From the NCBI GenBank assembly GCA_028277585.1, contig JANQFY010000088.1, positions 1 to 34,680 on the forward strand: 34,680 bases of DNA, written 5' to 3'. The position numbers were made by a program, and so were the translations under genes. The first letter of the stretch is position 1. Each line of letters starts with the position of its first letter. This DNA is from Sedimentisphaerales bacterium (GTDB lineage: Bacteria; Planctomycetota; Phycisphaerae; Sedimentisphaerales; Anaerobacaceae). A model generated the notes under the pieces. It worked only from the letters and a program-made list of their open reading frames with translations, searched no databases and was not told the DNA's origin. Shown in pieces: positions 22,669-34,680 of the stretch.

Positions 22669-23103
22669 CTTGGCCCAGTAGTCCACCACCACGACGTCGT
22701 CCAGGTGCGGCTTGAGCAGATCGCCGAACTCCTTGTGGGCCGGATGGGGCATGTACGTCGCCCGGTCCGCTTCGCTCAGGAAACTCACGAAGAAGCAGTG
22801 GGTGAAACCCTTCTGAAGGTTCTCGACGCTGACGTCGGTGCCCCACTCGTAATCGTAGATCGCATCGATCTTGCTGGGCAGCGCGCTGAAGGCATTCTCG
22901 ACCTTGCGAATATCAGCAGCGCTGGTGCCCTCTTTGAACTTGAACAGGACGACATGACGCAGCACCTGCGTAGGCGCCGGGGCCTGGGTCTGAACGTGGC
23001 AGCACGAGGCCGGCTCCTCGCAAACCCGCTTGGTCTCCTGGACATGGACGCAACCGCCGAGCAACACCGAGACGATCATCAGAAAAACTACGTTTCGAGC
23101 CAT
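22666..23103 (-). CDS. Dabb-domain lipoprotein
   Basis: A 145-residue lipoprotein. MARNVVFLMIVSVLLGGC gives a lipid-anchored Cys at residue 18, followed by a Cys/Pro-rich linker. From about residue 49 there is a complete stress-responsive alpha/beta-barrel (Dabb) domain: LRHVVLFKFKEGTS, the helix AADIRKVENAFSALP, YDYEWGTDVS, THCFFVSFLSEADRATYMPHPAH and DDVVVVDYWAK. Dabb domains form small dimeric barrels, and their roles differ between proteins. An ATG at 23109 is also possible, but ATG 23103 is nine bases from GAGG and gives the cleaner signal. The stop codon lies in the hairpin repeat. A lipid anchor on a Dabb domain is seen in several planctomycete proteins; the function here is open. Confidence 0.88.
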   Translation of the reverse strand: MARNVVFLMIVSVLLGGCVHVQETKRVCEEPASCCHVQTQAPAPTQVLRHVVLFKFKEGTSAADIRKVENAFSALPSKIDAIYDYEWGTDVSVENLQKGFTHCFFVSFLSEADRATYMPHPAHKEFGDLLKPHLDDVVVVDYWAK

Positions 23104-23254
23104 ATGCATTGACCTCACCAAAGAAACGTGAACATTCTCCACCTGCAACGTTGCCGGATTCTATCCGCCCGCACCGTCGGCGTCCAGACCAAACCCCGAT
23201 CCGATACTCAAGAACACCACGGGAGCTGAGGGCCGCCGCACCTCCAGAGCAGCG

Positions 23255-23569
23255 TTAGGACTTGACCATACTGAAGCGTGCTTTGACCCCGGCTTCGCAG
23301 ATCATGAAGACGTGGAGATAGTTCAGCATGAACGTGCGCCCCTTGGCGTCCTCCAGTTCGAGGTATTGAACAAACGGGCGGGCCGCATCGTCAATCTCCT
23401 CGAAGGTTCGCTTGCCCTTGATCTTCACGTCCTTGCAGACGGTGAGTCCCCGCCTCAGATGGTAGTAGACGTCGTAACGCTTCAGCAGATCGAAGTTCCG
23501 CAGGGGCAAGCTGCTCGATGATGGGGTCGCTGTCGCCTTTTTCGTTGCCTTCTTCCTGGCCTTGGCCAT
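23255..23569 (-). CDS. Small basic protein of unknown function
   Basis: A 104-residue protein with a strongly basic, Lys/Ala-rich N-terminus (AKARKKATKKATATP), a Ser run and then a compact folded part from about residue 23 (YDVYYHLRRGLTVCKDVKIKG to HVFMICEAGVKARF). There is no signal peptide. The start ATG 23569 has GGGAGG five bases upstream. The basic Ala/Lys tail resembles nucleic-acid-binding tails, so binding to DNA or RNA is possible, but I do not recognise the core domain. It is divergent from the deaminase gene. Confidence 0.7.
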   Translation of the reverse strand: MAKARKKATKKATATPSSSSLPLRNFDLLKRYDVYYHLRRGLTVCKDVKIKGKRTFEEIDDAARPFVQYLELEDAKGRTFMLNYLHVFMICEAGVKARFSMVKS

Positions 23570-23889
23570 GGGGGCCTCCCTTCTTCCGATTTCACACAGC
23601 GCGACATGCCGGCGTTTCTATGTGGCGTCTCGGAGCGCCGCCTGTGATTCCAAGGCCGACGTCCGTCTGGCAATACCGCCTGAGTCGCCAGGAAGGTCAT
23701 CATCCACGGGTGCGTGTTCGCAGCGACACCCTCAATTCTACGCAGGCCAATCGAGCTTTGTCAATGGAACCGACCGGCGTTTCGACACCGATCGGAACCG
23801 ATCGATTGATTCTGCGGGGTGTTGCGACTACTATGAAGCTGAAGGCATGGTGCCCGAGAAACGCCCTGAGTAAGATGTGGAGGACGACA
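23570..23889. other. Divergent intergenic region
   Basis: This region separates the small basic protein gene (-) from the deaminase gene (+). I see no gene in it. The only clear signal is the deaminase promoter at 23806-23834. Confidence 0.5.
23806..23834 (+). promoter_or_regulatory. Promoter of the deaminase gene
   Basis: TTGATT (23806-23811), a 17-base spacer and TACTAT (23829-23834). The predicted transcript starts near 23841, which excludes the ATG at 23833 as the start codon. Confidence 0.5.
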
Positions 23890-24498
23890 TTGAAGCAGGC
23901 ACAAGTGATACTTCAGTTGCCCGACTGGCTACGTGCACTGAACGAGCAACAGACGGATCCATTCGAAGACGTCCCAGCAAGGATGGACTTCGTCATCGAC
24001 CTGGCGCGGAAGAACATCGAGCGCGGCACGGGCGGGCCCTTCGGCGCGGCGATCTTCGCCAGCGACACGGGAGAGCTTCTGGCGCCGGGTGTCAACCTCG
24101 TCGAGCCGGCCCATTGTTCGATCGCCCACGCCGAGATGGTTGCCATCGCCCTGGCCCAGCAGACCTTGGGCGTCTTCGATCTGAGTGCAAACGGTCGCAC
24201 GTGCGAACTGGTGACCAGCACCGAGCCCTGCGCGATGTGCCTGGGCGCTGTCCCCTGGTCGGGGGTGCACCGGGTCGTCTGCGGGGCGCGGGGTGAGGAC
24301 GCCTGCGCGATCGGATTCGACGAAGGCGCCAAGCCGACCGACTGGATCGGCGCATTGGGCGAACGGGGCATCGAAGTGACGCGCGACGTCCGCCGCGATC
24401 AGGCCCGCACCGTTCTGCAACAGTACCACACCTCCGGCGGCTTGATCTACAACGCCGAACGGATCGATACCCACCGGTCCGACGCCGCCTCAGAGTGA
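23890..24498 (+). CDS. Nucleoside deaminase (CDA fold, guanine-deaminase-like)
   Basis: A 202-residue zinc-dependent deaminase of the cytidine deaminase superfamily, acting in nucleobase or nucleoside salvage. The zinc site is intact: HAEMVAI (His ligand and catalytic Glu) and TEPCAMCLGA (two Cys ligands). The N-terminal GGPFGAAIF and the C-terminal LIYNAER agree with the guanine/cytosine deaminase branch. The start is uncertain: TTG at 23890 is preceded by GGAGG with a six-base spacer, while ATG at 23875 adds five residues (MWRTT) without a good ribosome site. It is convergent with the prepilin-like gene, with a hairpin repeat in the gap. Confidence 0.88.
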   Translation: MKQAQVILQLPDWLRALNEQQTDPFEDVPARMDFVIDLARKNIERGTGGPFGAAIFASDTGELLAPGVNLVEPAHCSIAHAEMVAIALAQQTLGVFDLSANGRTCELVTSTEPCAMCLGAVPWSGVHRVVCGARGEDACAIGFDEGAKPTDWIGALGERGIEVTRDVRRDQARTVLQQYHTSGGLIYNAERIDTHRSDAASE

Positions 24499-24501
24499 TT
24501 C

Positions 24502-24521
24502 GGTGGGGCAAGCCCCCCCTA
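24502..24521. repeat. Hairpin repeat in a convergent gap, possible bidirectional terminator
   Basis: GGGGC-AA-GCCCC at 24505-24516, followed by CCCTAC, resembles the dispersed repeat at 605-633 and 22644-22668 in shortened form. It sits between the ends of two convergent genes, where a terminator is expected. Confidence 0.45.
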
Positions 24522-24545
24522 CCTCGGTTGAGTCACGAGTCGCCG

Positions 24546-25532
24546 CTAATACTGCTTGAACCGCCGCATCCACTGGGGCCAGTCTTCGCGCTGCACGCCG
24601 CCGGCCTTGGTCCAGGGCCCGGCCGTTTCGTAGTTCTTGTACCACTTGAGCGTCCAGAGTTCCTTCAAGCCCACCTCGCGCACCGACCAGTCCAGAAACA
24701 GCCCATTGACCCCGCCGTTGTGCCGGTTGATGCACGACTGCTGTCTCGTGCTGTTCGTAGTCACAGGTATTGCATCGCATTCGGGTGGATCATTGAAGAC
24801 AGCCGCCCCCGAATTGAGAGCCGCGCTGTCAAGCATGACGGGAATACGGTCCGCACCGCGAACGTCGGTCGTGCCCCATCCCTCGATGGATGGCGTCCGC
24901 CCCGAATGGTCAACAAAGTGGTAGGGGTTTAGGCCGTAGGTGCCATAGTGAGCGCGATGCTCCCGGGCGTAGTAGAGCCTCCAGGCCCGGAAAGTGCCAC
25001 CCAACAAGCCTTTACTGTCGGGCGTCTCCACCGCTGGTCTGCTGGCCATCGGACAGACGCGCACTGTGGGAGTCAGATGGCCGACATACGACGATTCGCC
25101 CCAGTAAAGCCAATCTACCGCAGGGTCTTGCGGAACGATCTTCCCCACCCGGAAGGTTCCGCCGTTCTCGTCGGCGAGCATGGCGCCATGGAGCCCCCAC
25201 TGCTTCAGACTGGCCTGACAGACCACCGCCCGCGCCTGCTTCCGCGCCCGCGACAGGGCGGGCATGAGCATCGCCATCAGCAGGACCACAATGGAGATGA
25301 CCACCAACAGTTCGATCAGCGTGAATCCGCAGCTTCTCGGCTTGGCATCTTGAGCGGAGCGCCGCGGAGCCGATGGACCTGCCCCATGGCCGGGCGCGCC
25401 TCTCGTTCCAGGGGAGATCTCTCCGTTCCAGCCCGGCGACGCCGGGCCTTCAGTCGAGATGACAGGAAGACTAGGCCGCACCGACTTTCCACTCGCGACG
25501 ACACAAGGGTCGTATCGTTCTCTCCGCCTCAT
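24546..25532 (-). CDS. Prepilin-like secreted protein with extended leader
   Basis: A 328-residue protein with the type IV/type II prepilin cleavage-methylation motif [12 protein letters not shown] at about residues 69-80, followed by the hydrophobic helix and [10 protein letters not shown]. The mature part is the planctomycete-type globular domain, with [12 protein letters not shown] and a C-terminal [14 protein letters not shown] and LWTLKWY. Such proteins are probably pseudopilins or substrates of a type II secretion-like system, and dozens occur per genome. The leader before the cleavage Gly is about 68 residues instead of the usual 5-20, and a palindromic repeat (25400-25465) is read through in frame within it. 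The start ATG 25532 has GGAG eight bases upstream. Confidence 0.85.
25400..25465. repeat. Dispersed palindromic element inside the prepilin leader
   Basis: Two palindromes lie close together: GGGGAGATCTCTCC (25411-25424) and GCCCGGCG-A-CGCCGGGC (25431-25447). They are flanked by TCTCGTTCCA and TTCAGTCGAGATGACAG. The arrangement matches a class of mobile-looking intergenic elements I know from other environmental genomes. Here it is translated as part of the leader. Confidence 0.55.
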
Positions 25533-25757
25533 GGCGTTCGCTCCAATCCTCTCAGTAGGAGCCCGATTGCCTTAGCGCCGACCAAACCGCTCGCCTGGGC
25601 GGAAAGATCGGTACCTCCACACATTGTCCACGGCGAATCTCGTAACCCCAGTATGGGCGCGATCCTGAGCGAAAGCAAGGAATTCGGCTCGGTTCGGGGG
25701 CGATCCTTCGCAGGCGGCTCGCGTAGTATATCTGGTGGACAGAAAGGAGACTGACGC

Positions 25758-26084
25758 ATGGCAACCTTGGATCAGAAGCGTTGCGTACCTTGCCGGGGCG
25801 GTGTTGAACCGCTGGCCGGGCAGCGACTGAGCGAATACGCCGCCCTGCTGGACGAACGATGGAGCGTGATTGACGGTCATCACCTCCACCGCGAGTACCC
25901 GTTCGACGACTTTCGCCAGGGATTGGACTTCGTCAATCGGGTGGGCGAACTGGCCGAGAGCGAGGGGCACCATCCCGATCTGACTCTCAGCTACGGCAAG
26001 GTCACGATTACGCTCTGGACACACAAGATTGACGGCCTGCACGAGAACGACTTCATCCTGGCGGCCAAGATCGATCGACTGTGA
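25758..26084 (+). CDS. phhB: Pterin-4a-carbinolamine dehydratase
   Basis: A 108-residue protein of normal family length. It dehydrates 4a-hydroxytetrahydrobiopterin, recycling the cofactor of aromatic amino acid hydroxylases; many bacterial copies also appear to serve other pterin pathways. The signature is ESEGHHPDLTLSYGKVTITLWTH at residues 67-89, with H71-H72-P73 and the Trp/His pair, followed by the LHENDF segment with its conserved Asp. The N-terminal CVPCRGG (Cys 9 and 12) is common in this branch. Start ATG 25758 has AAAGGAG upstream. No phenylalanine hydroxylase gene is visible in the window. Confidence 0.93.
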   Translation: MATLDQKRCVPCRGGVEPLAGQRLSEYAALLDERWSVIDGHHLHREYPFDDFRQGLDFVNRVGELAESEGHHPDLTLSYGKVTITLWTHKIDGLHENDFILAAKIDRL

Positions 26085-26123
26085 AGTAAGGGCTTGAGGG
26101 ACGCGTAGCGACGTAGAGATTCG

Positions 26124-26528
26124 CTACTGAGCGGCCGGGGTCTCGATGGGGCGGTTTTCGCGGGTCCAGACGGCCATGTCGCCAACAAGATGGTAGACCC
26201 TGGTGAAACCCGCCTGGGTGAGTGTGTTCTGGGCGATCCGGGCGCGGATGCCGGCCGCACAGTAGACGACCATATCGCAATCCCGGTGCGGCTCGAGTTC
26301 GGCGAGGCGATCAGCCACCTGACGATACGGAATGTGCAGGGCTCCGGGGATAGCGCCGGAGCGGTATTCGTTGTCCGAACGCACGTCCAAGACAACGCAA
26401 TCGGTCTGGCCCAATCGCTGAGCCAGTTGCGCGGTCGACATCTCCGGCCCCCGCGGGCCCATGCGGTGCCTGAGCACGACCGCACCGAGAAGCAGAACCC
26501 CCACGATCACAGCAAGTGTCCAGCCCAT
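26124..26528 (-). CDS. Membrane-anchored rhodanese-like protein
   Basis: A 134-residue protein with one N-terminal membrane segment (MGWTLAVIVGVLLLGAVVL) and a single rhodanese domain. The domain begins EMSTAQLAQRLGQ and contains VVLDVRSDNEYRSGAIPGALHIP. The active-site loop is VVYCAAGIRA, with the catalytic Cys and the loop Arg. It can transfer sulfur from a persulfide, with the domain probably outside the cytoplasmic membrane. ATG 26528 has GGAAGG upstream. It is convergent with the pterin dehydratase gene, about 40 bases apart. Confidence 0.9.
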   Translation of the reverse strand: MGWTLAVIVGVLLLGAVVLRHRMGPRGPEMSTAQLAQRLGQTDCVVLDVRSDNEYRSGAIPGALHIPYRQVADRLAELEPHRDCDMVVYCAAGIRARIAQNTLTQAGFTRVYHLVGDMAVWTRENRPIETPAAQ

Positions 26529-26703
26529 GGCCGCCTTCCATCTTCCTTCCAAGCGAGAAACTCCATCAGTACGCGGCATTCGATCGACGCCAACTTCTCC
26601 GTTCCCCGGCTCTACGCGGCTCTCCCCCGCCGGTTCACAGAATACGAAAGCAAGCCGATGCGGCGATGCGTGCGTTTTTCTGAGATTTTTTCCATTTGCC
26701 CGC

Positions 26704-26734
26704 TTGACCCGTCTACAGGTTCACACTCTAGGCT
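26704..26734 (+). promoter_or_regulatory. MerR-type promoter with 19-bp spacer
   Basis: TTGACC (26704-26709) and TAGGCT (26729-26734) are separated by exactly 19 bases. This overlong spacer is the hallmark of promoters that MerR-family activators remodel. It lies upstream of the small gene at 26793 and the merR-type gene at 27029, so autoregulation is likely. No convincing dyad is visible inside the spacer. Confidence 0.55.
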
Positions 26735-26735
26735 C

Positions 26736-26759
26736 GGATTGTCATGGCCGTGACAACCG
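26736..26759. promoter_or_regulatory. Dyad operator next to the predicted start of transcription
   Basis: TTGTCATGGCCGTGACAA at 26739-26756 has perfect 6-base arms, and flanking CGG/CCG extend the symmetry with a one-base offset. It lies just after the predicted -10 and before the ribosome site. Binding by the MerR-type protein or another repressor is possible. Confidence 0.45.
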
Positions 26760-26792
26760 TGTAATGTAAGCTAACTGAAAAGGAGAAGACAC

Positions 26793-26972
26793 ATGAGTGA
26801 ATTCGGTGTGGATCAATGGGTCGAATTGTTTGACGCGGTCGGCCTGGACAAGGCCAAGCGCCGCCAGTGGCACGCGTTGTTCGAGCAGCGCCATCCCGAG
26901 GCGCATCAGCGCTTCCTGGAGTGGCTCGGGCTGGATAACGCCATGATCAAGGACGCCAGAAGCATGAGCTAA
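26793..26972 (+). CDS. Free-standing copy of the MerR regulator's C-terminal domain
   Basis: A 59-residue protein with a strong start (AAAAGGAG before ATG 26793). Residues 5-48 align without gaps to residues 117-160 of the MerR-family protein encoded 56 bases downstream: 21 of 44 positions are identical, including the WV, AxGLD, RRxWH, FE, PEAHQ and FLE blocks. There is no DNA-binding helix, signal or membrane segment. The protein is therefore the effector or sensor domain of the regulator without its DNA-binding part. It could compete for ligand, pair with the regulator, or carry out the domain's unknown function. The gene shares the promoter at 26704 with merR. High confidence that it is real; the function is open. 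Confidence 0.85.
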   Translation: MSEFGVDQWVELFDAVGLDKAKRRQWHALFEQRHPEAHQRFLEWLGLDNAMIKDARSMS

Positions 26973-26984
26973 GAGATAGCCAAC

Positions 26985-27016
26985 GGTCGGCGGCCCCGCA
27001 AGCAGGGTCGCCGGCC
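26985..27016 (+). promoter_or_regulatory. Strong RNA hairpin between the small gene and the merR-type gene
   Basis: A 12-bp stem (26985-26996 with 27005-27016; two G-U pairs) and an 8-base loop end directly at the AGGAG ribosome site (27017-27021) of the regulator gene. There is no U tract, so full termination is unlikely. It could protect the upstream mRNA or limit regulator translation. Confidence 0.55.
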
Positions 27017-27028
27017 AGGAGTTCTACT

Positions 27029-27556
27029 ATGTACACAGTCTCCAAGATCGCCCGGCAGTTCGGCCTGTCGCGCAGCACATTGCTCTACTACGACCGTATC
27101 GGGTTGCTGAGCCCTTCCGGCCGTAGTCCCGGCGATTATCGCCTCTACGACCAGGCCGACTGCGACCGTCTCGAACAGATTTGCCAGTTGCGCCAGACGG
27201 GGCTTTCGCTCAAAGAGGTCGCCGAGATCCTCGACGGGAACGACTCGGCCCCACAGCGGTTGCTCAAACAGAGGTTGGCCGACCTGAACCAGGAGATCAA
27301 CCAGTTGCGTCAACAGCAACAGGTGATTGTCAAGCTCTTGGGCAATCCACAACTGATCCGATCCACCCGTATCATGACCGAAGAGACGTGGGTGATGATG
27401 CTGGAAGCGGCCGGGCTCGACGCGGTCGCGCGAAGGCGATGGCACCAGGCGTTCGAGCGGCACGCACCGGAAGCGCATCAGGATTTTCTGGAATCGCTCG
27501 CCTTTACACCTACTGAGATCGAGCAGATCCGAGCCGCCAGTCGTCAAGAGACCTGA
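27029..27556 (+). CDS. MerR-family transcriptional regulator with novel C-terminal domain
   Basis: A 175-residue regulator. Residues 1-70 are a complete MerR winged helix-turn-helix: YTVSKIARQFGLSRSTLLYYDRIGLLSP, then DYRLYDQADCDRLEQICQLRQTGLSLKEVAEIL. Residues 75-105 form the dimerisation coiled coil (LNQEINQLRQQQQV). The C-terminal domain (117-160, TWVMMLEAAGLD, RRRWHQAFE, PEAHQDFLESL) is the sensing part and is duplicated as the separate 59-residue protein upstream. The domain has no Cys metal site of the MerR/CueR type, so a heavy-metal ligand is unlikely; its Trp/His/acid-rich face suggests a small-molecule or protein ligand (inference). CAGGAG lies eight bases before the ATG. It ends 10 bases from a convergent gene. 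Confidence 0.93.
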   Translation: MYTVSKIARQFGLSRSTLLYYDRIGLLSPSGRSPGDYRLYDQADCDRLEQICQLRQTGLSLKEVAEILDGNDSAPQRLLKQRLADLNQEINQLRQQQQVIVKLLGNPQLIRSTRIMTEETWVMMLEAAGLDAVARRRWHQAFERHAPEAHQDFLESLAFTPTEIEQIRAASRQET

Positions 27557-27566
27557 GCGGGCCGCG

Positions 27567-27866
27567 TCAATCGACTTCGACGCGCATCTCGAAATCAGAA
27601 ATGTCGATCGCCGGTTTGCGTATGAAATCAATCCACGCGCCGCACCGGCATTCGGCGTAGAAATGCTGAACGTCGCGGAAGTCCGCCTGGTCCCGCTGGT
27701 TGCACAAATCCTTGGTCCGGAAGCCCTTGACACAGGCGCCGCAACTCGGACACGGGCATGCGAAATCGACCCAATCGAACGATTCTTCCGGGCGATCGAT
27801 CAGGGTGCGGGGTTCGTGATGCGGCAGCGTGAGGGCCGTTGCTCCTTCACCAAATCTCCCAACCAT
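27567..27866 (-). CDS. Small Cys-rich zinc-ribbon-like protein
   Basis: A 99-residue protein without a signal peptide. Cys residues are grouped as CPCPSCGAC (about residues 37-45), a single C near 55 and CRC near 73-75, a pattern that suggests one or two zinc sites. Aromatic and acidic segments (DWVDFAC, DISDFEMRVEVD) flank them. The ATG at 27866 has GGAG five bases upstream; longer starts have no ribosome site. It converges with the merR-type gene at a 10-base distance. I do not recognise the family. Confidence 0.65.
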   Translation of the reverse strand: MVGRFGEGATALTLPHHEPRTLIDRPEESFDWVDFACPCPSCGACVKGFRTKDLCNQRDQADFRDVQHFYAECRCGAWIDFIRKPAIDISDFEMRVEVD

Positions 27867-28054
27867 GGTTCTCCGTCTCCCTAATTGGCGCGGTCGAACC
27901 GACGGCGCCAAAGTGACAAAAAGCAGTCCCTTATCCGAGGCGTCCGTTCCGCAGATAGATTGATGAGGCGATTACAAATTCCCTGCATCACCAAGATATG
28001 ATCTTACTGCAAACACCAGGGCTGTGTCAAGCGCAAAGATGGGCCCAGAACCGT

Positions 28055-29134
28055 TCACCGCCGCTGCGAGAGGCGTCGCTGATCGGCGAAATCGCGGCCG
28101 TAGCGTCGGATCGCGTCCTTCCGGATGTGCTCCATGATGGGCGGGAAGTGGACCGCCGGTTCGACCCGCTTGCGGCGCTGCTCGGCGTCGGGGTAGGCGA
28201 CGGCCAGAATGGCGTTTTTCTCCCACTCGCGCGGCTCAATCTCCAACTTCGCGTAGAAACCATGCCTGGCCAAAATGTCAAGCGTCGGGGCCGGATACGA
28301 CACGGCCGTTGCGTCCTTGCAGGGCTCTGCGTCGGGCAGCCGCGTCGGGGACACCTCACCGTCCTCGAGACCGATGTCGAAGTTGCGCTCGATGATATCG
28401 ACAGAAAACAGCGACGAGCCGGTGAACCAGTCGCCCTTGACCTGGCGGGTTGCTTGTTTGGCCGCGTCGGCCGGCACGGGGCCCAGTCTGTCTATTTCCT
28501 CGCGCAGGGCGATCGTCATCGCCTCATTGAAGGAGTGCTCGCTGTCCTGCAGGGCTCGCACGGCCAGGTGCGTGCCGAGCAAATTCGAGTACGAATCCTC
28601 CCAGGAGAAAGCCGACGAGAACGCGGTGGGAAGCCCCACGCATTTGTATCCGAACCACGTGAGGATCTCGTGCCAGGTCGTCAGGTAGAACGCCAGGTGC
28701 GGCCCGAGCGCCGCGGCGACCTCCTCGGCAGCAGCGCGACGTTGCTCGTTCGGGCGTTGGGCCCAGTCCGACGGATAGGACAGCTCGACGAAATGGCGTG
28801 AGCGATCGACAGCCAGCTTGTATGAGAACCGCGTGTCGCCCTCCATCAGGTGTCGATAGGTTTTGTCGGTCAGATACTTTGTCCAGTCGGCGGCAATCCG
28901 CAAATGCGCCAGGTCGATGTGCCCGCCGCGACAGGTGTAGACGATGCCGTTCTGCTCGGAGAGGCTGAAGAGATACCCATGTTGACCCAGCTTCTGTGGA
29001 TTCGAATAGGGCGCGCCAAGCGTGGGAGTCGGGTAGGTCCCCAGTCGTGAGCGAGGTCGAGGCCCGTCCTGACAGCCAAGGGACATCAGAGCGAGCAGGC
29101 ACAGAACGACGACAGTGAGTGACCTCATGGACAC
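28055..29134 (-). CDS. DUF4056 lipoprotein
   Basis: A 359-residue lipoprotein. The signal MSMRSLTVVVLCLLALMSLGC places the lipidated Cys at about residue 21. The mature part matches the DUF4056 family along its length: NGIVYTCRGGHIDLAHLRIAADW, YRHLMEGDTRFSYKLAVDRS, TTWHEILTWFGYKC, FSWEDSYSNLLGTHLAVRAL, FNEAMTIALREE and FTGSSLF. The conserved His/Asp/Glu in these blocks suggest a metal or active site, but the family has no known function. A GTG at 29134 is chosen because GGAGG lies eight bases upstream; an ATG two codons later is too far from it. A good promoter lies at 29163-29191. Confidence 0.85.
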   Translation of the reverse strand: MSMRSLTVVVLCLLALMSLGCQDGPRPRSRLGTYPTPTLGAPYSNPQKLGQHGYLFSLSEQNGIVYTCRGGHIDLAHLRIAADWTKYLTDKTYRHLMEGDTRFSYKLAVDRSRHFVELSYPSDWAQRPNEQRRAAAEEVAAALGPHLAFYLTTWHEILTWFGYKCVGLPTAFSSAFSWEDSYSNLLGTHLAVRALQDSEHSFNEAMTIALREEIDRLGPVPADAAKQATRQVKGDWFTGSSLFSVDIIERNFDIGLEDGEVSPTRLPDAEPCKDATAVSYPAPTLDILARHGFYAKLEIEPREWEKNAILAVAYPDAEQRRKRVEPAVHFPPIMEHIRKDAIRRYGRDFADQRRLSQRR

Positions 29135-29162
29135 GGCTAGATCCTCCAAGAATGCAGGCGCG

Positions 29163-29191
29163 ATCCTATGCTGAATCGCGCAGAAAGTCAA
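29163..29191 (-). promoter_or_regulatory. Promoter of the DUF4056 gene
   Basis: On the minus strand TTGACT (29191-29186), a 17-base spacer and TAGGAT (29168-29163), about 30 bases upstream of the GTG at 29134. Confidence 0.5.
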
Positions 29192-29229
29192 GGGATTTCG
29201 CCCGATTGGCAACGTCCAGGCCTAACCGT

Positions 29230-30303
29230 CTACTCACGCAGTAGTTCCTCGATCTTGCTTCGCATCCATTTCTCACCCCCGGCCCCCTCCCAGTTGAGTT
29301 CGCCATACCACCAGTAACGAACGAAACCCTCCTTGTCGACCAGGTAGACACTGGGCCAGACGCGGTTGGCCCAGGCATCCCAGTTGCGGCTTCTGTTGTC
29401 GATGGCGATCGGATACTTGAGCCCGGCTTCGGTCGCCTTACGCCGCACCTGATCGACGACCCGCTCACCCTGGGTCTCAGGCCGGTGGATCCCGACGATC
29501 TTGAGTTCGTCGCGGGCGAAATAGTCGAACCACCCGTTGTAGTGCGGCAGATTCCGGATGCAGTTGATGCACCCATAGGTATAGAAATGCACGACGACGA
29601 CCTGCCCGCGCAACTGCGCGAGCGTCAGCGGGTCCGAGTTGATCCACGCCTCGACCCCATCCAACTCCGGGGCCCGACAGGCCGCTTGGCGGACCTGCGT
29701 CAAATCGAACGCCTGCCCCGTCAGCTTGCGCAGGGCATGCAACTGCTCCTTGCTGAGGATCGCCAGGATCTCCCGCTCGCCCCGGATCTTGCGGCGCCGA
29801 ACCCGATCCGCGTTGCGCGTCATCGCCCCGCCGCGCTGCAGCGTTGTTAGTTCACGCTCCAACACCTCCAACTCCGTCTTTATCCGCTGCGTCTGAGTGG
29901 CCGAGAGCTTCAGTTGCGCCGCTACGGCCGACTCGACGAGGGCGGGCAAGCCTCGGGCCTGTAGCGTGATCTGCTTCAAACGCTCTCGCTGCTGCGGTGA
30001 TAGGAACCCAGACAGCTCGGTCCGGAGCTTGCGGAGGAGCTGTTCGGCCGGCTCGCGACGCTCCTCCGGAGGCAGATCTCTCAGCCGCCAGAGAGGAATC
30101 TCGACCTCTTCGGCCGCCGCCACGACGGCCGCGACCTGGGCCGGCTGCAACGCCAGATCCTGGTGCACACGCGAATCGCGCAGCAACATCGTCAACGGAT
30201 GCGGAATCGGAACGTTTGCTCCACAAACCGACGCCCCGAAGGCAACGAGCATCACGCCGAGCCATCCCAGGTTGCTTCCCACCGTATGTTTGGACTGCTT
30301 CAC
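29230..30303 (-). CDS. Secreted thioredoxin-like protein with LTxxQ-type helical N-terminus
   Basis: A 357-residue protein with a signal peptide (GWLGVMLVAFGASVCGA). Residues about 45-200 are helical and contain repeated Leu-x-x-x-Gln steps (LSPQQRERL, LSATQTQRI, LSKEQLHAL), reminiscent of Spy/CpxP-like LTxxQ proteins. Residues about 205-357 are a thioredoxin fold of the TlpA/DipZ C-terminal kind: VVVVHFYTYGCINCIRNLPHY with the redox pair C245-C248, IVGIHRPE, and a cis-Pro in the RVWPSVYLVDKEG segment. It would act on disulfides or methyl-accepting partners outside the cytoplasm. The start is a GTG at 30303, with AGAGGTGA upstream. It is divergent from the LamG gene. Confidence 0.87.
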   Translation of the reverse strand: MKQSKHTVGSNLGWLGVMLVAFGASVCGANVPIPHPLTMLLRDSRVHQDLALQPAQVAAVVAAAEEVEIPLWRLRDLPPEERREPAEQLLRKLRTELSGFLSPQQRERLKQITLQARGLPALVESAVAAQLKLSATQTQRIKTELEVLERELTTLQRGGAMTRNADRVRRRKIRGEREILAILSKEQLHALRKLTGQAFDLTQVRQAACRAPELDGVEAWINSDPLTLAQLRGQVVVVHFYTYGCINCIRNLPHYNGWFDYFARDELKIVGIHRPETQGERVVDQVRRKATEAGLKYPIAIDNRSRNWDAWANRVWPSVYLVDKEGFVRYWWYGELNWEGAGGEKWMRSKIEELLRE

Positions 30304-30478
30304 CAGAATCTCACCTCTGAACCAACCATCTCACTGACCAAATCAATCACCCAACGCGAAACGTATACGGTGATCGCGCTGCCTTCGGTTCGTTTGGCGT
30401 GGTTTTTCCACGTGCCCATATTCTCTAAAAACGCACACCTGAAATGGGGTGACGAGCAAAAATACGTATTTACCGAAA

Positions 30479-30506
30479 TTGAGTCATTGCGCCAGATTCC
30501 TACAAT
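30479..30506 (+). promoter_or_regulatory. Promoter of the LamG protein gene
   Basis: TTGAGT (30479-30484), a 16-base spacer and TACAAT (30501-30506). The transcript would start near 30513. Confidence 0.5.
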
Positions 30507-30512
30507 AGAGAT

Positions 30513-30669
30513 AGATAGAGGAGCAGGTGCTCTCCGTACATCCGTCGTTTCGGGAGAAGGCCCCGAAACGGGCTGGTAGGCTCCCTCTCCAAGGAACTGT
30601 GTCGCTGCCCCCGTCGAAACGGGGCGCGCAGAAGGCAGATACGGGTAGGTTCGCATAGGAGGACAGACC
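30513..30669 (+). promoter_or_regulatory. Structured 5' leader of the LamG gene
   Basis: Three hairpins can be drawn: GAGCA-GG-TGCTC (30521-30532), CGTTTCGGG with CCCGAAACG (30546-30554 and 30562-30570, 7-base loop) and CCCCGT-CGAA-ACGGGG (30609-30624). A GGAGG site follows, about seven bases before the ATG. The fold does not match any riboswitch consensus I can recall, so I leave it as a leader of unknown role. Confidence 0.4.
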
Positions 30670-33621
30670 ATGTGCAGACGACTGTGTACCTTGGCAACAA
30701 GCGTTCTCGTGCTCGGCTCCGTTCTAGTCGGGGTCGCACCAGCCGGCGATCCTACGCTGGTGGGCTGGTGGAAGTGTGATGACGGGGCCGGAACCGTCGC
30801 CCGCGACTCCAGCGATTATGGCAACGACGGCGCATTCAACGGCGATCCTCAGTGGGTGGAGGGCTATTTCGGCGGCGCCATCGAATTTGATGGATCGGGC
30901 GACTACCTCGATTGCGGGGACGATCCGAGTCTGGACCTGACCACATGGACGATCACTTTCTGGCTCAACCTTAACGAGAACAAGAACTACAATGGGTATA
31001 TCGTCAAGGGCCTCGATGCGGCTGAGAACTTCGAAGTCCTGACGTATGGAGCGGGCAATTTCCACTTTCCCATCCTGTTTGAGGACGGCGGCCGGGGTTT
31101 CTCCAATACCGAGAACGGAGTCTCCATCGTTGGCGAGTGGTCGCACTACACCTACACCTACGACGCATCGGAGGGCCGGCGGTTCTACAAGGACGGCGTC
31201 CTGATCTTCGAGGACACCGAATCGAGGGTTCCCCAGACCAGCGACGAACCGTTGATCATCGGCAATGAAGGCGGCACGGACCGCTTCGTCCCCGGCGTCA
31301 TGGACGACATTCGTATCTACAACCGCGTCCTGACGGCCGAGGAACTGGCCGACGTACTGCTGGGGAAAGGGCCCGGTTCGGGGCTGGCTGCCGGCCCGAA
31401 TCCTGAGAATGAAGCGACGGATGTGCCGCGCGACGTCCCCCTGTCCTGGGAAGCAGGTGAGTTTGCCGTCACGCACGACGTGTATCTGGGAACCGTCTTC
31501 GAGGATGTCAACGAGGCCAGTCGTACCGATGACAGAGGCATGCTCATCAGCCAGGGTCAGACGACTACGACGATCGATCCCGAGGGCGTTTTCGAGTATG
31601 GTCAGACCTATTACTGGCGTGTTGATGAGGTCAACGGCGCGCCCGACAACACGATCTTCAAGGGCGAGACCTGGAGCTTCACCGTCGAGCCGCTGGGCTA
31701 CCCAATTGAGAACGTCGTCGCCACGAGCAATGGCGTCCCCCAAGCCGGCGCCGATCCAGTCAATGCGGTTAACGGCTCCGGGCTTAACGAGAACGACGAG
31801 CATTCGATCAACAGTACGGACATGTGGCTGGTCGCCTCGACGGGGGATGAGCCGCTGTTCATCCAATTCGAGTTCGATGGCGTTTACAAGCTGCACGAAA
31901 TGCTCGTCTGGAACTACAACGTCGCGTTCGAGCTATTGCTCGGCTTCGGGCTCAAGGATGTCACAATCGAGTATTCGGAGAACGGCGCCGACTGGATGGC
32001 GCTGGGTGACGTGACGCTCAATCAGGGTGCGGCCAACGCCGCGTACACCGCCAACACGATAGTCGACTTCGGCGGCGTCGCGGCCCAGCATGTCCGGCTC
32101 ACCGTCAACAGCGGTTACGGGATGATGGGGCAGTTCGGGCTCAGCGAAGTCCGCTTCCTTTACGTCCCGGTCCAGGCCCGCGAGCCGCAGCCGGAAGACG
32201 GCGCTGTGGATGTCGGCGCCAATGCCGACCTGAGTTGGCGGGCCGGGCGCGAAGGCGTCTCGCATGAGGTCCACCTCGGCGCCGATCCTGACGCGCTGGA
32301 ACTTCTCGACACAGTCAGCACAACCACCGTCGATCCCGGCGCTTTGGACCTGGCGGCAACGTACTACTGGCGGATCGATGAGGTCAACGACGCCGAGGCG
32401 ATCAGTACGTGGGAAGGCAAGGTCTGGAACTTCTCGACGGAGACCTATATCGTCGTCGAGGGCTTCGAGAGCTACGATGATGAGGAGAATCGCATCTATC
32501 AGACCTGGGTCGATGGCTATGGCGTCGACGGCAACGGTTCCCAGGTCGGGCACCTCGAGTCGCCGTTCGCTGAGCAAACGATTGTCAGGAGCGGCGCACA
32601 ATCAATGCCGTTGTTCTTCGACAGCACGGGCGGCACCGCCCTCTCAGAGGCCGAGCGGTCGCTGGATGTCCCAATGGACTGGACGGCCCATGGCGTCAAA
32701 TCGCTGTCCCTGGCGTTTGCCGGCGACGCGACCAACACGCCCGGCCAACTGTACGTCAAGGTCAACGGCACGAAAGTTCTCTATGACGGCGCGATGGCCG
32801 ATCTGCAGGTTTCCGGATGGCTGGCCTGGACGATCGACTTGGCCGCGCTGGGCAACGTGAGCAACGTCACGACCCTGACGATCGGCATCGAAGGCGCCGG
32901 CGCCCAGGGCGTGCTGTACGTCGATGACATCCGACTGTACCCGCTGGAGAGTGAGATGATCGAACCGGCCGAGCCCGATGCGGCCGGCCTGGTCGCCCAC
33001 TACCCGCTCGACGCCGACTTCCAGGACGCCAGCGGTAACGGCAACCACGCGGCGCCCGTCGGCGACGTGGTCATCACCAATGATCCGGCCCAAGGCGGGG
33101 TCGCCAGTTTCGACGGGCTCGGCGATGGCCTGCAAGTGCCGGCCCTTGACGGTGGGACCGCTGCCGAGATGACCATCTCTCTATGGATGAATACGGACAT
33201 CGCCTGGAGCAGTGGGTTCTTCGCGGTCTATCACAACGACGGCTGGGATGCCGGCGACATCCACATGCACATCAGCGGGGGCGGCTACTTCACCGCCGGC
33301 GTCAACGGCCTGTCCGGCGGAGACCTGGCGAGCGGAACGATGCCCGTGATCGACGAATGGTACAACGTCACGGTAACGATTTCGACCGCCGAGACGGCTC
33401 TCTATATCAATGGAGTCCAGGAGGCCCTGCGGATTCCGACCGCGGCCCCGGAGACTTTCAACCTGGGCGAGGGCCATCTCGGCGCCTGGCTCAACGGCGC
33501 GAACATCGAGCGTGCGCTGACCGGCCAGATCGACGAGGTGCGTTTCTACAATCGCGCCCTGTCCTACGGCGAGGTCATGAGCCTGGCCGGCCGCACGACG
33601 CCGCTCTACAGGGCTTTCTGA
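30670..33621 (+). CDS. Large secreted LamG/discoidin multidomain protein
   Basis: A 983-residue exported protein built for carbohydrate or surface binding. Domain order by residue: signal peptide 1-26; a first LamG/concanavalin-like domain about 30-235 (GWWKCDDGAG to GVMDDIRIYNR); an Ig/Fn3-like linker with TYYWRVDEVN about 240-345; an F5/8 type C (discoidin-like) domain about 348-500 (IENVVATSNG to AQHVRLTVNSGYG); a second Fn3-like linker with TYYWRIDEVND about 505-595; a jelly-roll-like domain about 596-765 (VEGFESYDDEENRIYQTWVD to YVDDIRLYP); a second LamG domain 775-980 (GLVAHYPLDADFQDASGNGNHA to IDEVRFYNRAL). There is no catalytic domain or C-terminal sorting signal. Such proteins are hallmarks of glycan-degrading Phycisphaerae. 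ATG 30670 has GGAGG upstream; a terminator follows the gene. Confidence 0.93.
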   Translation: MCRRLCTLATSVLVLGSVLVGVAPAGDPTLVGWWKCDDGAGTVARDSSDYGNDGAFNGDPQWVEGYFGGAIEFDGSGDYLDCGDDPSLDLTTWTITFWLNLNENKNYNGYIVKGLDAAENFEVLTYGAGNFHFPILFEDGGRGFSNTENGVSIVGEWSHYTYTYDASEGRRFYKDGVLIFEDTESRVPQTSDEPLIIGNEGGTDRFVPGVMDDIRIYNRVLTAEELADVLLGKGPGSGLAAGPNPENEATDVPRDVPLSWEAGEFAVTHDVYLGTVFEDVNEASRTDDRGMLISQGQTTTTIDPEGVFEYGQTYYWRVDEVNGAPDNTIFKGETWSFTVEPLGYPIENVVATSNGVPQAGADPVNAVNGSGLNENDEHSINSTDMWLVASTGDEPLFIQFEFDGVYKLHEMLVWNYNVAFELLLGFGLKDVTIEYSENGADWMALGDVTLNQGAANAAYTANTIVDFGGVAAQHVRLTVNSGYGMMGQFGLSEVRFLYVPVQAREPQPEDGAVDVGANADLSWRAGREGVSHEVHLGADPDALELLDTVSTTTVDPGALDLAATYYWRIDEVNDAEAISTWEGKVWNFSTETYIVVEGFESYDDEENRIYQTWVDGYGVDGNGSQVGHLESPFAEQTIVRSGAQSMPLFFDSTGGTALSEAERSLDVPMDWTAHGVKSLSLAFAGDATNTPGQLYVKVNGTKVLYDGAMADLQVSGWLAWTIDLAALGNVSNVTTLTIGIEGAGAQGVLYVDDIRLYPLESEMIEPAEPDAAGLVAHYPLDADFQDASGNGNHAAPVGDVVITNDPAQGGVASFDGLGDGLQVPALDGGTAAEMTISLWMNTDIAWSSGFFAVYHNDGWDAGDIHMHISGGGYFTAGVNGLSGGDLASGTMPVIDEWYNVTVTISTAETALYINGVQEALRIPTAAPETFNLGEGHLGAWLNGANIERALTGQIDEVRFYNRALSYGEVMSLAGRTTPLYRAF

Positions 33622-33680
33622 ACGAGTCGTAGATTGCACTAGCGCACATCCGAGGTTCAGGATGCTGCAAGAAGCTCCCC

Positions 33681-33716
33681 AAGGGGCTGTAGGCCTTACC
33701 TGCAGCCCCTTTCTCA
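33681..33716 (+). terminator. Rho-independent terminator of the LamG gene
   Basis: A 13-bp stem (33681-33693 with 33699-33711, one G-U pair) with a 5-base loop (CCTTA) and a TTTCT tract, 60 bases after the stop codon at 33621. Confidence 0.85.
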
Positions 33717-33813
33717 TCTCCACCTCCTCAGTATTCCCGGCTGAATGAGCCGCTCCTCCATGGGACGGCCGGGCATGTGATGTACTTTTCTTCATTTTTT
33801 TCTATTTCGCCCC

Positions 33814-33859
33814 TTGGCGCCTTACGACACTTGTAGTATTATGAGCTACAGTTGTAGTA
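33814..33859 (+). promoter_or_regulatory. BlaI-type promoter and operator
   Basis: TTGGCG (33814-33819), a 17-base spacer and TATTAT (33837-33842). TTGTAGTA occurs twice, at 33831-33838 and 33852-33859, 21 bases apart, and the second forms the dyad CTACA-GT-TGTAG (33846-33857). TACA/TGTA half-sites are the known target of BlaI/MecI repressors. Their overlap with the -10 and the start of transcription predicts autorepression. Confidence 0.7.
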
Positions 33860-33872
33860 AGGAGAAACGCCT

Positions 33873-34247
33873 ATGAAGCTAACGAATTCCGAGTGGCAAC
33901 TGATGAACTGCCTGTGGGAGCGGCATCCGGCGACGGCGCGAGGGATTGCCGAACGGCTCCCCGAAGACATCAAGTGGGCCTACACGACCATCCGCACGCT
34001 GCTGGCTCGACTGGCCGAGAAAGGCGCGATTCGCGAGTACAAGGAAGGCAATACCAGCTTGTACGAGCCGATCCTGACCCGCGACAACGCCCGGCGCAGC
34101 GCGCTCAAGACCCTGGTCAACCAGGCGTTCGATGGCGCGTACGGCCCCTTGATGCATTTTCTGGTCAACGACAAACGCCTCAGCAACGAGCAACGGGAAG
34201 CGCTGACCAAGGTCCTTGAAGACCAATCAGAGACGAAGGGAGAATGA
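33873..34247 (+). CDS. BlaI/MecI-family transcriptional repressor
   Basis: A 124-residue repressor of normal family length. The winged helix covers residues 1-75: LTNSEWQLMNCLWERHPATARGIAERL, WAYTTIRTLLARLAEKGAIREYKEGNTSLYEPIL, in which TTIRTLLARL is the recognition helix. The C-terminal part forms the dimer and carries the site that the partner protease usually cleaves. AAGGAG precedes ATG 33873. The membrane metalloprotease-sensor gene follows after four bases, and an operator lies upstream. In Planctomycetota such pairs are numerous and mostly not linked to beta-lactam resistance; no beta-lactamase gene is visible here. Confidence 0.95.
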   Translation: MKLTNSEWQLMNCLWERHPATARGIAERLPEDIKWAYTTIRTLLARLAEKGAIREYKEGNTSLYEPILTRDNARRSALKTLVNQAFDGAYGPLMHFLVNDKRLSNEQREALTKVLEDQSETKGE

Positions 34248-34251
34248 GGAA

Positions 34252-34680
34252 ATGAGCGAAGCGATCAATCATTACGCGGGCCTGTGGTGGAACTGGCAAT
34301 GGGCAATGCTCTGGCAGACGGCGCTCCTGGTCGCCGTCGTCGCGCTTCTCGACCGGCTGGTGCGCAAGTGGGCGTGGCCCCAACTGCGCTACGCCCTTTG
34401 GCTGTTGATTCTCGTCAAACTGGTGCTCCCCCCGACGTTGACCTCGCCGGTGAGCGTCACCTCGACCGTCCCGGCCCTGGCGCAGGAGGCCGCAGTCATG
34501 CATGTTGCGGTTCCTCCGACGGCAGATCAGACCGTCAGGGTTGCGCCCTCGACACCGATGGTGGCAAAACCGACCGTCACAGAGGCTCAGCCGGCGCCGG
34601 TCCTCACATCGGCGCCAATCAAGCTGGAAACCACGGCGCCCCCCCTTTCCTGGCGTGCCTGCGCCATGGGTGTATGGCTG
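34252..34680 (+). CDS. BlaR1/MecR1-family M56 sensor protease, N-terminal part (cut by window end)
   Basis: The 143 visible codons encode the start of a membrane protein. Two hydrophobic segments (WAMLWQTALLVAVVALL and ALWLLILVKLVLPP) are joined by a short basic loop (RLVRKWAWPQLRY), the typical beginning of M56 proteases of the BlaR1 type. A Pro/Thr/Val-rich extracytoplasmic stretch follows, and a further segment begins at the edge. The metalloprotease HExxH motif would lie outside the window. The start ATG 34252 has GAGGAA upstream and lies four bases after the repressor stop. The pair forms a signal-transduction unit in which the protease inactivates the repressor. Confidence 0.88.
   Translation, partial: MSEAINHYAGLWWNWQWAMLWQTALLVAVVALLDRLVRKWAWPQLRYALWLLILVKLVLPPTLTSPVSVTSTVPALAQEAAVMHVAVPPTADQTVRVAPSTPMVAKPTVTEAQPAPVLTSAPIKLETTAPPLSWRACAMGVWL

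What the first reader, a model, noticed from the sequence alone, without database searches (positions are those of the whole stretch)
26704..27556. A regulator whose sensing domain is also encoded as a separate 59-residue protein
The C-terminal domain of the MerR-family protein (residues 117-160) and the upstream small protein (residues 5-48) align without gaps with 21 of 44 identities, including the blocks WV, GLD, RRxWH, PEAHQ and FLE. The genes share one promoter. A free sensor domain next to its parent regulator could act as a ligand buffer, a decoy partner or the actual effector that the regulator mimics. I know of no described system of this form. It could be a small self-contained regulatory cassette.
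Basis: partly seen in the sequence, partly recalled or inferred. Interest (0 to 1): 0.8.

Follow-up and report, generated by a model that had tools for sequence, protein, structure and literature searches.

The report
Self-contained sensor-domain copy regulatory cassette
A bacterial gene switch sits in a two-gene unit whose only other product is a 59-residue free copy of the switch's own sensing part, apparently made in larger amounts and probably used to soak up whatever molecule the switch detects.

Summary
It is not a local accident. In sampled genomes I counted 37 with a stand-alone S; in 32 of 37 it lies directly upstream of a MerR with the same domain, and three of the other five S genes are at contig ends. 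S and M look like two old lineages that travel together. Of 30 pairs analysed, 27 have a MerR-type promoter match (25 with at most 1 mismatch; 19-bp spacer), 25 have a significant hairpin between S and M, and in 26 S has the stronger ribosome site. Apart from diverse ABC ATPases, no other gene family recurs in three or more of 29 loci; the own genome has one exact promoter copy. The domain matched no Pfam, NCBIfam or PDB family. Best reading: an autoregulated, ligand-induced sink that works like Streptomyces TipAL/TipAS, but with an unrelated domain and a separate gene. The ligand is unknown and sink function is inferred. Related regulators under similar promoters follow an EamA transporter or carry a fused methyltransferase.

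The parts
26704..26734 (+). MerR-type promoter/operator: -35 TTGACC (26704-26709), 19-bp spacer, -10 TAGGCT (26729-26734)
   Evidence: Sequence; motif with up to 3 mismatches before S in 27 of 30 pairs; 1 exact site in own genome
26741..26754 (.). palindrome GTCATGGCCGTGAC in the leader, of unknown role
   Evidence: Similar GGCC-centred palindromes seen by eye in several other S leaders; no RNA-structure signal (mean z -0.03 over 26 leaders)
26780..26785 (+). ribosome-binding site of the small gene (AAGGAG)
   Evidence: -8.7 kcal/mol against -6.9 for the MerR gene; S stronger in 26 of 30 pairs
26793..26972 (+). stand-alone sensor-domain protein (S), 59 aa, four predicted helices; conserved H27, E31, H38
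26985..27016 (+). intergenic stem-loop between S and MerR (12-bp main stem); read as a read-through or processing element
   Evidence: spacer 26973-27028 folds at -29.7 kcal/mol, z -4.6 (z -4.0); p<0.05 in 25 of 30 pairs; control stretches z -0.19
27029..27556 (+). MerR-family regulator (M), 175 aa: winged HTH (residues 2-69), coiled-coil helix (74-105), C-terminal sensor domain (about 117-171)
   Evidence: Pfam MerR_1 1.9e-18; model; domain match

Best explanation
It is a two-gene, autoregulated detoxification or buffering cassette. SHOWN BY SEQUENCE: a MerR-type promoter with a 19-bp spacer precedes first a 59-aa stand-alone copy of the regulator's sensor domain and then, after a hairpin, the regulator itself; S has the better ribosome site in most pairs; S and M keep the same three residues (H27, E31, H38). 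INFERRED: the MerR dimer sits on the over-long spacer, is inactive without ligand, and on binding the ligand through its C-terminal domain distorts the DNA and switches the promoter on. The hairpin and the stronger ribosome site make S the abundant product and M the scarce one. S binds the same ligand, lowers its free concentration and so both protects the cell and switches the operon off again. It works like TipAL/TipAS, but the sink is a separate, anciently diverged gene and the domain is a different one. The ligand is unknown; a small organic compound is favoured over a metal because relatives of the regulator, under similar promoters, follow an EamA transporter or carry a fused methyltransferase with an acetyltransferase gene next to it.
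For: Homology. 32 of 37 stand-alone genes directly upstream of a domain-bearing MerR, same strand. Promoter match in 27 of 30 pairs, hairpin p<0.05 in 25 of 30, S ribosome site stronger in 26 of 30, Wilcoxon p=0.0002. No other specific recurrent neighbour in 29 loci; one exact promoter site in the own genome. S and M separate lineages. H/E/H kept in S and M. Alternative arrangements under similar promoters: EamA transporter, MerR-methyltransferase fusion. Precedents: TipAS (PMC7762955, passages) and the isolated GyrI-like domain of STM3175 giving albicidin resistance (PMC10414762, passages).
Against: No ligand, binding or expression data. Stand-alone copies differ consistently from M (W44 where M mostly has S; W9 and W26 often F or L in S), so they may bind the ligand differently or bind something else. 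In 5 of 30 pairs the spacer hairpin is not significant, in 4 of 30 S has the weaker ribosome site, in 3 of 30 no promoter match was found. G1516 has S and a promoter-like site (2 mismatches) but no MerR match in its genome. A hairpin can also stabilise or process an mRNA without lowering M. Many genomes have a domain-bearing MerR without S.
Confidence: 0.5

Rival explanations
1. S is a protein partner of the regulator: it docks on M (or on its target surface) and tunes it, as a decoy, co-activator or anti-activator, rather than holding the ligand.
For: S and M stay paired over long distances (32 of 37) and diverged as two lineages, as expected of partners. S has its own signature (W44 in 29 of 37 S rows, Ser there in 40 of 45 M rows). 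S-M identity within a genome is slightly higher than under shuffled pairing (p=0.005).
Against: The three conserved residues are shared by S and M and lie in helices 2 and 3, which fits a common ligand better than an S-only interface. S in excess is also expected of a sink. In two Vibrio plasmids a transporter gene takes the place of S before the MerR.
Confidence: 0.22
2. S is an enzyme, carrier or chaperone acting on the ligand (turnover or delivery to another protein) and is the true effector of the operon.
For: The conserved His/Glu/His could be a catalytic or metal site. Relatives include a methyltransferase fusion and a neighbouring acetyltransferase gene. S can occur without a MerR match (G1516).
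Against: 59 residues in four short helices is small for an enzyme; the same residues are kept in M, where catalysis is not expected; no specific gene recurs that could receive a delivered ligand.
Confidence: 0.18
3. Toxin-antitoxin-like or selfish two-gene module, with MerR as the neutralising regulator.
For: Two genes, self-contained, patchy distribution, MerR-type promoter; no match in the five congeners.
Against: S is homologous to the regulator's own sensor domain; S occurs without a MerR match (G1516) and M often occurs without S, so neither depends on the other; no PADLOC match for S, and for M only its HTH part matches one model, mad1.
Confidence: 0.04
4. The small ORF is a vestigial or chance duplicate without function.
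For: Small and without any family annotation.
Against: Kept in frame with its blocks in 37 genomes, mostly with promoter, ribosome site and spacing.
Confidence: 0.02

Closest known systems
TipAL/TipAS (Streptomyces lividans tipA)
   Same: MerR regulator with a C-terminal ligand-binding domain; the domain is also made alone; the regulator activates its own gene; the free domain is the predominant form and traps the ligand (PMC7762955, passages).
   Different: TipAS comes from an alternative start codon of the same gene; here it is a separate, diverged gene upstream. The domain is not Pfam TipAS (one search lists no TipAS match at E up to 1) and is about 55 residues. Ligand unknown.
STM3175/YgiV and GyrI-like domains
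   Same: The isolated ligand-binding domain of a regulator can itself give resistance by trapping a compound (PMC10414762, passages).
   Different: STM3175 has an AraC-type DNA-binding domain and a GyrI-like ligand domain; no GyrI-like match here. I saw no dedicated paired cassette in the passages read.
Metal- and redox-sensing MerR regulators (CueR, ZntR, CadR, MerR, SoxR)
   Same: N-terminal winged helix, long helix and 19-bp spacer promoter (the last is general knowledge of these families).
   Different: All listed NCBIfam models score below their curated cut-offs; the C-terminal domain is outside these models' matched stretches.

Membership tests
MerR family | N-terminal winged-HTH of MerR type | tested here: met
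   MerR_1 E=1.9e-18, 66.7 bits against cut-off 21.6
MerR family | long dimerisation helix after the HTH | tested here: met
   predicted helix 74-105, mean pLDDT 76.6, only 3 rows in the alignment; dimer not modelled
MerR family | target promoter with over-long (19-bp) spacer | tested here: met
   26704-26734; hexamer after 19 bases in relatives, not always TA-rich. That M binds there is not shown
MerR family | ligand-dependent activation of its own promoter | not testable with these tools
   needs a reporter assay
TipA class | TipAS-type effector domain (PF07739) | tested here: not met
   no TipAS match at E up to 1 for either protein
TipA class | effector domain also encoded alone | tested here: met
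   stand-alone gene 26793-26972; production of the protein not tested
TipA class | short form made from a second start of the same gene | tested here: not met
   separate upstream gene here and in 32 of 37 genomes with S; an additional internal start in M was not tested
TipA class | binds thiopeptides | not testable with these tools
   -
Known equivalog MerR sensors (CueR, ZntR, CadR, MerR, SoxR, NmlR) | score above curated NCBIfam cut-off | tested here: not met
   best 55.6 bits against 143
Any fold with a solved structure | clear structural match of the S model | tested here: inconclusive
Toxin-antitoxin module | toxic product neutralised by its partner | not testable with these tools
   -

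The most novel reading that the evidence does not exclude
A previously undescribed ligand-binding domain family (about 55 residues, four helices, H-x3-E-x6-H) that bacteria deploy in interchangeable formats under one conserved promoter: as a MerR sensor, as a free sink made in excess from a hairpin-separated two-gene cassette that spread between phyla as a unit, and fused to a methyltransferase, all against one still unknown compound or class of compounds.
Probability: 0.35. Interest if true: 0.8.

Novelty: new variant of a known kind. Interest (0 to 1): 0.62.

Why it matters
If right, it is a minimal natural feedback circuit (promoter, sink, hairpin, sensor) in under 900 bases, and shows that the TipAS principle of making the sensor domain alone, in excess, as the protective protein arose again with an unrelated domain and as a separate gene. 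It defines an unannotated domain family with a clear residue signature and a recognisable promoter, so the ligand can be sought directly with a reporter. The alternative arrangements under similar promoters give independent clues to that ligand.

Tried and rejected
Recent local duplication: rejected; in the first set all 19 S rows and all 28 M rows have a nearest neighbour of their own type, and S is one side of a branch (85/87; 84% of bootstraps). In the enlarged set (36 S against 48 others, G1685 counted with M) the free search did not find S as one clade (0% of its bootstraps), but the tree holding S together had a log-likelihood 9.84 higher, p-AU 0.716; 83 of 84 rows have a nearest neighbour of their own type. 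The exception, G1685, is a stand-alone copy closest to M: perhaps a second, independent origin. With 53 columns these trees are weak.

Mis-binned contig: unlikely for the window. A 677-aa protein of the same contig is 69-79% identical in 5 of 5 congeners. Synteny ends near window 23.1 kb in G003 and G002 and near 18.5 kb in G004, and neither S nor M was found in the fetched stretches, so the cassette lies in a variable part. L006 is a 4.9-kb contig of a Sumerlaeaceae MAG with S and M 85% and 89% identical to G961: transfer or mis-binning, not decided.

Larger regulon: three further own-genome promoter matches with 2 mismatches, against two in the reversed control. Structured leader RNA: mean z -0.03, p<0.05 in 3 of 26. 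Rfam 26600-27700: none at gathering thresholds. Fold search: nothing clear. Plasmids: one record matches P0001, and that is a MerR; phages: none. Conserved neighbours: in 29 loci with up to about 5 kb on each side, the clusters spanning 3 or more loci were S/M, opposite-strand ORFs mostly overlapping S or M, and ABC ATPases of different types. Literature: full-text searches listed no paper that I recognised, from titles and abstract starts, as describing this domain or cassette; only the open-access library was searched.

Errors of mine, corrected: residue labels are one too high; one search picked wrong genes in several rows and was replaced; one search filed the M domains of G1379 and G1391 as S, corrected; the L051 row has wrong coordinates and that alignment is not used. 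Rows left out: G1379 and G1391 are pairs by reading but not in the 30. Hits G483, G542, G557, G668, G706 and the decayed G575, the methyltransferase fusions, and fragments G1170, G1427 and G1639 were left out of the trees; G557 and G706 appear to lie in unrelated proteins. In many genomes the search tool scored only part of its first candidates, so misses are possible.

Full report
OBSERVATION. The window carries a 59-aa ORF (26793-26972, S) 56 bases before a 175-aa MerR-family gene (27029-27556, M). M has a MerR HTH (MerR_1, 1.9e-18). S has no match in Pfam or NCBIfam (E up to 1), PADLOC or PHROGs (E up to 0.1), or PDB sequences (E up to 1). The C-terminal part of M lies outside the stretches matched by its strongest hits; one weaker NCBIfam model, FtsR, reaches residue 172 at 39.9 bits against a cut-off of 150. 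PADLOC's mad1 matches M only at residues 2-47.

SPREAD. With one query, 2 of 99 related genomes matched, the own one and G076, which has only the MerR form (ORF). With an 8-row profile: 1 of 392 genomes of the own phylum (only the own genome); 16 of 369 in the class of the Chromatiales MAG G480 at E up to 0.001, some weak and not all real; 2 of 20 in the order of G722; 11 of 194 in the phylum of G482; 1 of 40 in the phylum of the Sumerlaeaceae MAG; 12 of 335 in the class of G957; 20 of 398 in the phylum of G480. These samples overlap, and the tool scored only part of its candidates in many genomes.

ADJACENCY. I count 37 genomes with a stand-alone copy. In 32 it lies directly upstream of a domain-bearing MerR on the same strand (30, G1379 and G1391). 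The other five: the S genes of G480, G556 and G1426 are at contig ends; G1516 has no MerR match; G1685 has its MerR on another contig and its S is M-like. In the phylum of G482 all 11 matching genomes had the pair, and four of those pairs (G947, G957, G965, G1016) lie in contigs of 3.2-6.1 Mb.

ANATOMY. In one search, 30 of the 32 pairs were processed by one rule (G1379 and G1391 missed by its HTH pattern; start codons were chosen as the ATG with the best ribosome-site energy, for S and M alike). The spacer from S stop to M start is 22-180 bases. The promoter motif lies 38-104 bases before S in 27 of 30: 17 without mismatch, 8 with one, one with two, one (G1376) with three, which is weak; G1047, G1035 and G1009 have none at that limit. 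The motif was derived from early members of this set. A -10-like hexamer, often TAnnnT, follows after 19 bases, the spacing typical of MerR targets (established knowledge). S has the better Shine-Dalgarno energy in 26 of 30 (mean -6.3 against -3.1 kcal/mol, p=0.0002). The S-M spacer folds better than dinucleotide shuffles at p<0.05 in 25 of 30 (mean z -3.3); 29 of 30 have a stem of at least 9 pairs, G1376 has none. Control stretches in S genes (a few reach into the leader) have mean z -0.19 (34 stretches of 17 pairs). In the window the main stem is 26985-26996 with 27005-27016. In G1028 and G1009 a T-run follows, as in a terminator; in the window it does not.

TWO LINEAGES. Mean identity is 0.45 within S, 0.50 within M, 0.446 between S and M of one genome and 0.417 between genomes; the slight excess within genomes is significant by permutation (p=0.005), so some co-evolution or exchange is possible. 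S and M separate in the first tree (85/87); the enlarged set does not reject it (p-AU 0.716), though its free tree did not show it. H27, E31 and H38 are the same in all 37 S-labelled and 45 M rows (two of those S rows were in truth M domains; the S domains of G1379 and G1391 printed keep all three). Caution: the script's pattern for finding the domain itself demands the two His and Glu or Gln; however, all 32 pairs placed by the profile search passed it. In the methyltransferase fusions the two His are kept and the Glu is Glu, Asp or Asn (my reading).

STRUCTURE. S models as four helices (6-15, 20-33, 35-44, 49-58; pLDDT 88.5). M shows four helices in the same order after its coiled coil (118-127, 132-145, 147-156, 161-173, lower confidence). 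H27 and E31 are one turn apart in helix 2 and H38 is in helix 3.

OTHER ARRANGEMENTS. A similar promoter precedes an EamA transporter followed by the MerR in two Vibrio plasmids; a 133-145-aa protein of unknown family before the MerR in G723; the MerR itself in G516, G802 and, more weakly, G076, in an Acinetobacter plasmid (2 mismatches) and, weakly (4 mismatches), a Pseudoalteromonas plasmid, and in G1681, G1669 and G1675 (2 mismatches); and MerR-methyltransferase fusions in G542 and in Morganella and Pseudoalteromonas plasmids, the latter two followed by an acetyltransferase gene (the Pseudoalteromonas fusion judged by eye). In G747 the MerR start overlaps a 131-aa frame that I read as the end of a transporter (not tested); no close promoter match was found there. 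Across 29 loci no family beside S and M recurs in three or more loci except ABC ATPases of different types and opposite-strand ORFs mostly overlapping S or M.

MECHANISM. Since the only conserved products of the cassette are the sensor regulator and a free copy of its sensor, with signals that favour the free copy, the economical reading is a ligand sink under feedback control, as in TipAL/TipAS (PMC7762955, passages). That an isolated sensor domain can protect is shown for STM3175 (PMC10414762, passages). Shown: homology, order, promoter, hairpin, conservation. Inferred: ligand binding, excess of S, activation, protection. The partner and enzyme rivals are not excluded.

NOVELTY. The principle is known; the domain, the separate and anciently diverged gene, the hairpin arrangement and the cross-phylum cassette I did not find described in the searches listed. 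I file it as a new variant of a known kind.

Noticed in passing
window 26741-26754; leaders of G1028, G1111, G1152, G1177, G1264, G1458: A palindrome centred on GGCC (e.g. GTCATGGCCGTGAC) lies just behind the -10 box in the window and in several relatives; it has no RNA-structure signal and may be a second protein-binding site.
   Followed up: partly
L044 3001-4685, L045 3001-4718, L027 1216-2388: MerR regulators fused to a SAM methyltransferase, with what looks like a form of the same sensor domain between, under a similar promoter; in L044 and L045 an N-acetyltransferase gene follows.
   Followed up: partly
L041 2005-3525, L042 2012-3522: A similar promoter precedes an EamA-type transporter followed by the MerR in Vibrio plasmids.
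   Followed up: partly
L018 703-1137: Protein of unknown family (no Pfam or NCBIfam match) as the first gene under the same promoter, before the MerR.
   Followed up: no
L115 about 1506-1668 (G1685): A second kind of stand-alone domain, close to the MerR form, with its own promoter-like site (2 mismatches) and no MerR beside it: perhaps an independent origin.
   Followed up: partly
window about 23100-34680: Synteny with congeners G003 and G002 ends near 23.1 kb; nine tested proteins from 23.5-33.6 kb, S and M among them, plus the 23.5-24.5 kb ORF, were not found in the syntenic stretches.
   Followed up: partly
window 24546-25532: Prepilin-like protein with N-terminal methylation motif and a weak H-X9-DG match.
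   Followed up: no
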